Source: an uncultured Eubacteriales bacterium | GTDB taxonomy: Bacteria; Bacillota; Clostridia; Oscillospirales; Acutalibacteraceae | Direction: 5' to 3' | NCBI GenBank assembly: GCA_949296825.1 | Contig: CASFQZ010000020.1 | Coordinates: forward strand, 1-43,916 | DNA: 43,916 nucleotides | Shown: piece after piece, positions 192-2,204 of the stretch | How the letters are laid out: every line of letters starts with the position of its first letter | Position numbering within the stretch: the first letter of the stretch is position 1 | The notes under the pieces: generated by a model | The model's database searches: none | What the model saw: only the letters and a program-made list of their open reading frames with translations | Told to the model about the DNA's origin: nothing | Position numbers and translations under genes: made by a program

Positions 192-1481
192 TTACAGCGA
201 GCTTGCCATCGGGACAAGGCGGACGGGATCGTCGTCCTCATCCTGAATGCGGGTAATATCCGCGCCCAGGGCGGTGAGCTTCCCCAGAATATTCTCATAT
301 CCGCGCTCGATCAGGTGGATATCCTCAATGGTGGTTTCGCCGCGGGCGACCAGACCGGCAATAACCATTGCCGCCCCCGCGCGCAAATCATCAGCGCGGA
401 CCGGCGCACCCTTCAAAAATGACACGCCCTCAATGATGGCAGCCTTACCCTCGACCTGAATGGAGGCGCCCATGCGCAGCAGCTGCTCGACATAGCGGAA
501 CCGGTTGTCCCAAATACCCTCGGAGATAATGCTTGTTCCCTCTGCAATGGCAAGCATCGCGGCGAACTGCGGCTGCATATCCGTCGGGAAGCCCGGATGG
601 GGCATGGTTTTGATATTGCATTTCAAGGGACGGCCATGGGCGACAACATGGACGCTGTCAGCATATTCCTCGACCTCGACGCCGCTTTCCACCAGCTTGG
701 CGCTGATGGAATCCAAATGCTTCGGAATCACATTGCGCACCCAGACGTCACCGCCGGTCGCCGCTGCGGCAACCATATAGGTCCCCGCCTCGATCTGATC
801 CGGGATAATGGAATAATCGCAGCCGTGCATGGTCTCGGCGCCGCGAATCTTAATCACATCGGTACCTGCGCCGCGCACATCCGCGCCCATCAGATTCAAA
901 AAATTCGCCAAATCAACAATATGCGGCTCTTTGGCTGCGTTCTCAATGATGGTCATACCCTTGGCGCGCACCGCCGCAAGCATTACATTGATCGTCGCGC
1001 CGACGCTGACCAGATCGAAATACACCGAGCCGCCCAACAGCTCCCGGGAGGTTGCCTTAATGACTGCGTTTTCGGTCTTGACCCGCGCGCCCAGCGCTTC
1101 AAAGCCCTTGATGTGCTGGTCGATGGGGCGAACGCCGAAATTGCAGCCGCCGGGCATGGCGACCTCCGCCCTCCCCGATCTGCCGAGAAGAGCGCCGATA
1201 AAATAATAGGACGCGCGCATTTTCCGCGCCATGGCATCCGGCACGGTATGCGAAGAAATCGAAGTTGTGTCAATTTCATAGGTGTTCGGACTCACGCGGC
1301 GCACCGAAGCGCCCAGATGACGAATGATGTCCATCATCAGCCGCACATCCCGAATATCCGGGATGTTCTCAATCCGACAGGACCCTTTGGCAAGCAGTGT
1401 CGCAGGAATAATCGCCAGCGCCGCGTTTTTCGCACCGCTGATTTCAACATTCCCAACCAGACGTTTGCCGCCGTGTATCAT
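192..1481 (-). CDS. murA: UDP-N-acetylglucosamine 1-carboxyvinyltransferase (MurA/MurZ)
   Basis: First committed step of peptidoglycan synthesis in the cytoplasm: transfers enolpyruvate from PEP to UDP-GlcNAc. The 429-residue length fits the family. Visible motifs are SGAKNA near residues 15-20 (the substrate-binding lysine is K18), PGGCNFGVRPIDQH with the catalytic, fosfomycin-target cysteine at C113, and the GFPTDMQPQ block holding the catalytic aspartate. The frame stays open upstream to 1613, but the start at 1481 is chosen because the protein there begins at the canonical N-terminus (MIHGGKRLVG) and has a GGAAAAG ribosome site four bases upstream. It is transcribed alone, with its own terminator, behind an unusually long structured leader (1482-1920). 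Many Firmicutes carry two MurA paralogues; which one this is cannot be settled here. Confidence 0.96.
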   Translation of the reverse strand: MIHGGKRLVGNVEISGAKNAALAIIPATLLAKGSCRIENIPDIRDVRLMMDIIRHLGASVRRVSPNTYEIDTTSISSHTVPDAMARKMRASYYFIGALLGRSGRAEVAMPGGCNFGVRPIDQHIKGFEALGARVKTENAVIKATSRELLGGSVYFDLVSVGATINVMLAAVRAKGMTIIENAAKEPHIVDLANFLNLMGADVRGAGTDVIKIRGAETMHGCDYSIIPDQIEAGTYMVAAAATGGDVWVRNVIPKHLDSISAKLVESGVEVEEYADSVHVVAHGRPLKCNIKTMPHPGFPTDMQPQFAAMLAIAEGTSIISEGIWDNRFRYVEQLLRMGASIQVEGKAAIIEGVSFLKGAPVRADDLRAGAAMVIAGLVARGETTIEDIHLIERGYENILGKLTALGADITRIQDEDDDPVRLVPMASSL

Positions 1482-1636
1482 AAACTTTTCCAAAAAGCAG
1501 CACTTCCTTATAAATTTTGACGACATTTGAAGCGAATCTTCGACGAAAAGAAAAAGAGTCGTCAACCCGCACGCCAGCAGAAAAGAAGAAAATACCGGCG
1601 TGGAAACACCCAATGTAAGCTCTGTGCATGGTATAC

Positions 1637-1705
1637 CTAAATCCTCCCCCCGTCAGGGGACAGCGGCGCAGCCGCGCCTTTGCCGAAGGCAAAAAAGGAT
1701 TTATG
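1637..1705 (-). repeat. Hairpin module proximal to murA
   Basis: On the minus strand, AAATCCT and AGGATTT form an outer stem. It encloses three hairpins: TTGCC/GGCAA (loop TTC), GGCGC/GCGCC (loop GGCT) and CCCC/GGGG (loop TGAC). The plan resembles the two neighbouring copies, but the primary sequence differs. Confidence 0.6.
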
Positions 1706-1802
1706 ATACAATGTTCTCAAACGGGCGCGAGGCGCCCGTCACCGCAAAGCGGGGACAAATCCGCTGACAAGAGGATTTTAACCTGAGGTTATTCTACCAT
1801 GC
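1702..1802 (-). repeat. ~101-bp tandem repeat, copy A
   Basis: About 85% identical by eye to copy B 129 bp away. Minus-strand folding gives an outer CTCAG/TTGAG stem (one G-U pair), an AATCC/GGATT hairpin, CCGC-TTT-GCGG, and an 8-bp ACGGGCGC/GCGCCCGT hairpin. Its end reads GCATGGTAGAAT, a weaker version of the terminus of copy B. Confidence 0.75.
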
Positions 1803-1830
1803 GTGCGAGGCGGGAATCGTCGCCGAGCGA

Positions 1831-1931
1831 TATGATACAATGTTCTCAGGTGGGCGCAAAGCGCCCGTCACCGCAAAGCGGGGACAAATCCGCTGTTAAG
1901 CGGATTTTAATCTGAGATTATTATACCATGC
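1831..1931 (-). repeat. ~101-bp tandem repeat, copy B
   Basis: Same plan as copy A with better pairing: outer TCTCAG/CTGAGA, perfect AATCCGC/GCGGATT, CCGC-TTT-GCGG and GGGCGC-TTT-GCGCCC. Differences from copy A fall mainly in loops or keep the pairing (G-C versus G-U in the outer stem), which suggests an RNA-level structure. Its outer end contains the TATAAT of the putative murA promoter. Confidence 0.75.
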
Positions 1932-1948
1932 TTCCCCCTCATTGAAAA
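1920..1948 (-). promoter_or_regulatory. Putative sigma-A promoter for murA
   Basis: On the minus strand, TTTTCA (1943-1948), a 17-bp spacer and a perfect TATAAT (1920-1925). The -10 box sits in the terminal repeat of the array, so the transcript would carry the whole array as a leader of roughly 430 nt. The -35 matches only four of six positions. Confidence 0.5.
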
Positions 1949-2204
1949 GTATTTTTTTACAATTCTTTTATTTTGGTGACATTTTTGTAAGAATTGTCAA
2001 AATGTTTCACGGCGCATTGGTGTTTCTTCCAAATTTGAGCGAACAAATATTCTGAAATTTTATTACATAAGAACATTGCCACAAAATAGCGCGGTATCTT
2101 AACGCAAGCCCACAAGGTATCGGGTTCGCTTGGCGGTTTGCTGCCGCAGTTCCGGGCTGCGACTGTTTCGCTTTTTTGTGGGCATCCTATCGACAGGCGC
2201 CTTT
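1949..2204. other. Non-coding AT-rich spacer with a long-range inverted repeat
   Basis: No supported gene. GCCCACAA at 2108-2115 and TTGTGGGC at 2176-2183 are perfect 8-bp complements that bracket a GC-rich core. The core can form CGCAG/CTGCG or, alternatively, GCGG/CCGC hairpins. 1950-2100 is AT-rich and otherwise featureless. Confidence 0.5.

What the first reader, a model, noticed from the sequence alone, without database searches (positions are those of the whole stretch)
1637..1931. Three consecutive cloverleaf-like RNA modules in the murA leader
On the minus strand each of three modules has a closing stem around three hairpins. Two are ~101-nt tandem copies whose differences fall in loops or keep pairing (outer stem G-C versus G-U; loops CTC versus TTT on identical GGGCGC/GCGCCC stems). 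They sit between a TATAAT and the murA start, so they would form a leader of about 430 nt on a key cell-wall gene. This could be a tandem regulatory RNA not yet described, or a mobile repeat recruited as a leader.
Basis: partly seen in the sequence, partly recalled or inferred. Interest (0 to 1): 0.72.

Follow-up and report, generated by a model that had tools for sequence, protein, structure and literature searches.

The report
Mobile repeat that inserts into promoters
The folded repeats in front of murA look like copies of a small mobile DNA family that lands in the start signal of genes and leaves a working signal behind, so that the repeat would become the first part of the gene's RNA.

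Summary
In detail: three hairpin-rich modules lie in the murA leader, two of them 101-nt tandem copies. They are not a murA-specific regulator but a dispersed, non-coding, modular repeat: 14 strong A-units at 10 places here, 18 in congener G004, none in G001. Relatives have empty orthologous promoters, and the extra DNA begins at the -10 box; in 11 loci compared, left flanks match up to the -10, 8 beyond all shuffles. The TATAAT at the left edge lies behind a host -35, with a sharp peak at 17 nt over 46 flanks. Of 46 sites, 41 lie in sense before a gene, 1 antisense, 4 undetermined (partly by eye). The genes are unrelated. A strict pattern hits 8 of 394 genomes of the order, in 4 families, own included, and only the own genome among 398 of the phylum. 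Stems differ strongly between lineages, yet 17 of 17 chosen units from 14 genomes keep a closing stem around three hairpins. Best reading: a structure-defined, non-autonomous mobile element aimed at the -10 box. Its enzyme is unknown.

The parts
1943..1948 (-). host (native) -35-like hexamer TTTTCA, 17 nt before the TATAAT
   Evidence: 35 of the last 40 nt before the -10, this hexamer included, are shared with the empty site of G001
1920..1925 (-). -10 box TATAAT at the left edge of the insertion; the native -10 in G001, G004 and G005 is TATACT
1831..1929 (-). unit A, first copy: closing stem around three hairpins
   Evidence: R1 match 109.4 bits; fold and shuffles
1801..1830 (-). linker module C (GGCG..CGCC), also seen on G000 contigs C72, C32 and C103
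1702..1800 (-). unit A, second copy, beginning ATGGTAGAAT
   Evidence: R1 match 97.8 bits; 89% identical to the first copy
1638..1701 (-). unit B: AATCC..GGATT closing stem around three hairpins
   Evidence: by eye; B modules of other genomes folded
1630..1635 (-). right-hand -10-like copy TATACC, where native sequence resumes (TATACCATGCACAGAG against TATACTATGCACATAG in G001)
192..1493 (-). murA; start taken as the in-frame TTG at 1493 (or ATG at 1481)
   Evidence: NCBIfam TIGR01072 murA, 427.2 bits against cut-off 392.7; TTGGAAAAGTTTATG conserved in G001 and G004; longest frame starts at 1613

Best explanation
The modules are a non-autonomous, structure-defined mobile element. Its unit is TATAAT-A-X'-B (or C in place of B); A and B are each a stem closing three hairpins, X' is the A/B junction, and units can join head to tail. 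It inserts in sense at the -10 box of host promoters. The host -35 then works with the TATAAT at the element's left edge, so transcription goes on and the element becomes the 5' leader; the old -10 ends up at the right edge and often decays. At murA this would lengthen the leader from about 130 to about 420 nt. Shown by sequence: dispersed copies, empty sites, position, orientation, a fold kept while stems change. Inferred: mobilisation by a recombinase in trans that reads the folded single strand, and a preference for the -10 because it melts in the open complex or pairs with X' (ATTGTATCAT). The enzyme and the exact cut are not known.
For: Dispersed copies: 13 BLAST matches and 14 strong units in the own genome; 18 in G004, 1 in G002, none in G001, G003, G005, G006. 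Empty sites: 12 of 18 downstream genes queried (11 compared, one more, L050, read); flank identity up to the -10 beyond 200 shuffles in 8 of 11; no unit recognised in any of 39 fetched orthologous stretches (first part). Promoter position: of 46 left flanks, mean match to TTGACA 3.20 of 6 at spacing 17 against 0.87-2.13 at the other spacings from 8 to 44; at least 4 of 6 in 18 of 46 at spacing 17, at most 7 elsewhere. Orientation: 34 sense, 5 antisense, 7 uncalled of 46 by crude calls; 41 sense, 1 antisense, 4 undetermined after reading. The left copy is TATAAT where relatives have TATACT or TAARAT (murA, cca; less surely L066 and the rarA-like locus). Tandem arrays in G004, G617 and G471. Fold: 17 of 17 chosen units from 14 genomes; closing stem pairs 205 of 231 cells over 33 distinct rows, maximum 183 in 500 row shuffles.
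Against: No transposase or autonomous relative was found, and no copy was caught moving. The outer ends have no terminal inverted repeats. Whether TATAAT is duplicated or element-borne is unresolved. X/X' pairing does not exceed row shuffles (192 of 230 cells, shuffle maximum 192). In 3 of 11 loci the flank identity is within the shuffles. Four of 18 queried genes gave no alignable empty site and two only partial ones. One site (L051) is antisense to its gene, and two flanks (L064) lack a good -35. G001 is only 87% complete, so its zero rests on the loci read, not on the genome count alone.
Confidence: 0.85

Rival explanations
1. A regulatory leader RNA class (riboswitch-like or protein-sensing) with its own promoter, spread over a regulon.
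For: Nearly always in sense behind a promoter-like pair; strong fold and compensatory changes; in two congeners (G445, G527) the site before one gene is shared and its closing stem differs by compensatory changes.
Against: Downstream genes are unrelated; orthologous promoters lack it; hairpin sequences vary strongly between lineages; the transcribed strand folds better than its complement in only 8 of 63 units.
Confidence: 0.07
2. An ordinary TA-target MITE with no promoter preference; only insertions that kept a promoter alive survived.
For: TA is common to the breakpoints; MITEs with TA ends and with promoters are known (PMC2229807 and PMC10969869, passages).
Against: Survival alone hardly explains the 17-nt spacing and 41:1 orientation, and none of the 42 judged sites lies between convergent genes by my crude calls; no terminal inverted repeats. 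BOX, RUP and IS copies in pneumococcus are over-represented between convergent genes (PMC3049150, passages).
Confidence: 0.12
3. Single-strand transposition of IS200/IS605 type, with X' as guide to the TATAAT-bearing ends and target.
For: Hairpin-rich, insertion beside one short sequence, fixed orientation on the non-template strand; IS608 recognises its target by base pairing with a guide (PMC5934647, passages).
Against: A Y1_Tnp (PF01797) match is present in 7 of 15 carriers and 7 of 10 genomes without the element, and absent from G000, G451, G471 and G617; X/X' pairing is conserved rather than covarying.
Confidence: 0.2

Closest known systems
Bacterial MITEs (Correia elements, RUP)
   Same: short, non-coding, dispersed, structured; some carry sigma-70-like promoters (PMC10969869, passages)
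   Different: no terminal inverted repeats at the outer ends; sits at the -10 in sense; hairpin sequences vary strongly between lineages while the topology stays
BOX elements of Streptococcus pneumoniae
   Same: modular (A, B, C), partly tandem, dispersed, foldable
   Different: BOX is over-represented between convergent genes (PMC3049150, passages); here 41 of 42 judged sites lead a gene
Integron attC sites
   Same: recognised by fold with little sequence conservation, bottom strand favoured (PMC2727003 and PMC6393395, abstract starts in the listing); here too the bottom strand folds better in 54 of 63 units
   Different: no cassette gene; three-hairpin topology; sits in promoters
IS200/IS605 elements and non-autonomous derivatives
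   Same: hairpin-rich ends, insertion beside a fixed short sequence, possible guide pairing
   Different: no Y1 transposase match in several carriers
IS110 / bridge-RNA elements
   Same: no terminal repeats, structured RNA, promoter formed at the element junction (recalled)
   Different: IS110 transposase matched in only 1 of 15 carriers

Membership tests
MITE | many dispersed non-coding copies | tested here: met
MITE | terminal inverted repeats | tested here: not met
   no inverted pair of at least 12 nt joins the two ends of the element; outer ends AACCTC and TTTATGG are not inverted copies (by eye); the 10-nt pair at murA comes from the native -10
MITE | target-site duplication | tested here: inconclusive
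   TATAAT-like direct repeat at both edges, but the left copy is consensus where relatives have TATACT or TAARAT
MITE | shares ends with a transposase-bearing element | not tested
IS200/IS605 | Y1 transposase in the carrier genome | tested here: not met
   7 of 15 carriers, 7 of 10 non-carriers; none in G000, G451, G471, G617; an extinct or unrecognised enzyme is not excluded
IS110 / bridge RNA | DEDD transposase in the carrier genome | tested here: not met
   1 of 15 carriers, 2 of 10 non-carriers
Integron attC | fold kept without sequence | tested here: met
   17 of 17 chosen units
Integron attC | bottom strand favoured | tested here: inconclusive
   bottom folds better in 54 of 63 with RNA parameters, top in 20 of 63 with DNA parameters; alignment counts of GU against AC favour the top, 15 to 9; units are related
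Integron attC | R/L boxes and an integron integrase | not tested
   no search made
Riboswitch or leader-RNA regulon | same position before orthologous or related genes | tested here: not met
   one shared site in G445/G527
Any Rfam family | covariance-model match | tested here: not met
   0 at gathering for the window; 0 at E up to 1 for 1450-2100

The most novel reading that the evidence does not exclude
A new kind of mobile element whose folded single strand is the recombination substrate, and which is aimed at the melted -10 region of active promoters, nearly always in sense. It keeps the host promoter alive by supplying its own TATAAT, so that each copy is transcribed with its host gene.
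Probability: 0.35. Interest if true: 0.87.

Novelty: new variant of a known kind. Interest (0 to 1): 0.72.

Why it matters
Mobile elements usually break promoters or bring their own. This family appears to enter the most conserved promoter element without silencing it, which is a clean, testable case of target choice by promoter architecture. It would also lengthen the leaders of core genes with strong structure, and give a natural readout of where promoters open. If the enzyme is found it could serve as a promoter-tagging tool.

Tried and rejected
Rejected: murA-specific riboswitch (empty orthologues, unrelated genes). Rejected: phage origin. Seven IMG/VR stretches match the strict pattern, show no cloverleaf and are, by my own rough estimate, about what chance gives; no similar DNA in phages or plasmids at E up to 1e-5. 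Tried without result: Y1 transposase, IS110 transposase, Rfam. Considered: the two copies on contig C103 as ends of one larger element; between them lie an ECF-type sigma factor gene and a 396-aa frame that I did not identify, so dropped.

X/X' covariation seen by eye is not above row shuffles and carries little weight. Strand choice is left open: GU against AC counts favour the transcribed strand in one alignment (15 to 9), fold energies the other (bottom 54, tie 1, top 8 of 63; GU pairs in own folds 54 bottom, 34 top; top better in 20 of 63 with DNA parameters). The loose scan returned 140 rows, many of them chance; only rows at known units were read. In one search the gene calls are crude: I overruled L066, L067, L210 and L216a, added L063, L068 and L214 by eye, and left L065, L203, L208 and L216b undetermined. 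In one search, L207 is an inner unit, L064 counts twice with one flank, and G445/G527 share a site; none was removed from the 46. In one search the empty-site motif of each locus was picked by eye, and the L058 locus uses the left flank of L053, which I take to be the other end of the same array. Row shuffles do not keep relatedness. Units were chosen by me, one or two a genome.

Literature: nine searches listed no paper that I recognised as describing such an element; only listings, and passages of four papers, were seen.

Full report
What is there. On the minus strand the murA leader holds two 101-nt direct repeats (1831-1931 and 1702-1802, 89% identical) and a third, different module (1638-1701). 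The stretch folds far better than shuffles (z -6.9, 0 of 100). No Rfam family matches.

It is a repeat family. BLASTN of the leader against its own genome gives 13 matches, the query itself included. A covariance model of unit A (R1, from 14 own copies) gives 19 rows at E up to 0.1, of which 14 units above 50 bits lie at 10 places. Modules are A (about 99 nt), B (about 65 nt) and C (about 30 nt), joined by ATGGTATAAT-like boundaries. In G004, a congener whose contig C3 has the length of the named record CASFEZ010000003.1 (uncultured Eubacteriales) and carries the same array at the same place, A-B units form a 158-bp tandem array, 4.6 copies within the stretch held. Of 60 genomes searched, the own one included, 4 have R1 matches: G000 14, G004 18, G016 3, G002 1; of six congeners, G001, G003, G005 and G006 have none.

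Empty sites. I took pieces of 18 downstream genes and sought their orthologues in the seven genomes of the genus, then read upstream DNA. For 12 I could place the empty promoter: murA, a gyrB/parE-type gene, cca, ligA, a DnaD-domain gene, a rarA-type ATPase, and the genes behind L050, L056, L058, L066, L067 and L073. Eleven were compared by script: the last 40 nt before the -10 are alike in filled and empty sites beyond all 200 shuffles in 8 (by only one or two letters for ligA, parE and L073); in L067, rarA and L058 they are not, though a -35 and a -10 align by eye. L050 was read only by eye. L052 and L054 gave partial evidence; L057, L064b, L069 and L070 none. For murA, G001 reads TTTTCA-17-TATACT-ATGCACATAG; G000 has TTTTCA-17-TATAAT, then the element, then TATACC-ATGCACAGAG. 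So the element entered at the -10 box; here the left copy is consensus and the right copy keeps native letters. None of 39 fetched stretches, which include for each of the 18 genes the orthologue in the other of G000 and G004, carries a unit recognised by my pattern (first part); decayed copies could escape it.

Promoter position and orientation. For 46 left flanks from 15 genomes the match to TTGACA peaks at spacing 17 (mean 3.20 of 6; 18 of 46 with at least 4 matches), against 0.87-2.13 and at most 7 of 46 at other spacings from 8 to 44. Crude gene calls give 34 sense, 5 antisense and 7 without call; after reading sequences I count 41 sense, 1 antisense (L051) and 4 at contig ends. Downstream genes are unrelated. 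Best NCBIfam names for ten of them, several below cut-off because queries were truncated: murA, gyrB/parE type, CCA transferase, ligA, DnaD-domain, RarA-like ATPase, a weak sugar-isomerase match, an iron alcohol dehydrogenase, an ECF sigma factor, an arylsulfatase.

Fold kept, stems free. A strict pattern (TATAATAACCT, 55-84 nt, AGAACATTG) matches 8 of 394 genomes of the order, the own one included, in four families. In the phylum draw it matches 1 of 398, the own genome. R1 finds 6 of 300 genomes of the family, the own one and five other genera; with over 40 genomes the filters are stricter and weak copies may be lost. Stems differ strongly between lineages (for example G000, G002, G016, G445, G505, G617), while G016, G295 and G309 resemble each other. 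All 17 units tested, chosen from 14 genomes, fold as a closing stem around exactly three hairpins; 0 to 3 of 100 shuffles do so. The closing stem pairs in 205 of 231 cells over 33 distinct rows from 63 units (shuffle maximum 183). Of the B modules shown for 12 genomes, 11 fold as closed three-hairpin domains and G451 does not.

DNA or RNA? The left TATAAT cannot be in the transcript of a first unit, so any pairing of it with X' would be in DNA (inference). The non-transcribed strand folds better in 54 of 63 units, with 1 tie, and the transcribed strand in 20 of 63 with DNA parameters; but units are related and one alignment count points the other way. This leans towards a DNA-level role, as in attC sites, and does not prove it.

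Mechanism. The data fit insertion of a unit at a -10 hexamer in a fixed orientation, with tandem growth by repeated insertion into the TATAAT that each copy carries. Whether TATAAT is duplicated or element-borne is open; element-borne fits murA and cca better. Y1 transposases (7 of 15 carriers, 7 of 10 others) and IS110 transposases (1 of 15, 2 of 10) do not track the element. Regulation is a possible by-effect: the murA leader would grow from about 130 to about 420 nt (computed from the two -10 copies and the TTG at 1493).

Compared with what is known. It works like a MITE or an attC-type folded substrate, but not all tested defining features are met (see membership test). Passages read from three papers describe promoter-bearing MITEs; the passages seen do not describe sense insertion at the -10. 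Nine literature searches listed no such report that I recognised; the library is partial, so this is no proof of absence in print.

Noticed in passing
window 1954-1967 and 1989-2002: Inverted repeat AAGAATTGTCAAAA / TTTTTACAATTCTT just upstream of the murA -35, also visible in G001 and partly in G004; perhaps an operator of the native murA promoter.
   Followed up: partly
L064:54-114 and L064:2299-2359: Two elements on contig C103 share an identical 60-nt upstream flank without a good -35, before an ECF-type sigma factor gene and before a gene ahead of what look by eye like rimP and nusA.
   Followed up: partly
L053 (G004:C22 start) and L058 (G004:C50 end): Two contig ends seem to carry the two sides of one array before one gene; contigs end at such arrays elsewhere too (G617 C1 end, C5 start, C13 start).
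   Followed up: no
L160 and L214 (G445, G527): Insertion before the same gene in two congeners, with closing stems CCTCGGT/ACCGAG and CCTCAGCC/GGCTGAG: compensatory change after insertion, or replacement.
   Followed up: partly
L066:3450-3526 (minus strand) and L069:651-684: Decayed or collapsed copies: one A-only unit ending ATGGTATTAT, and one where the three hairpins are lost and the ends form a near palindrome.
   Followed up: no
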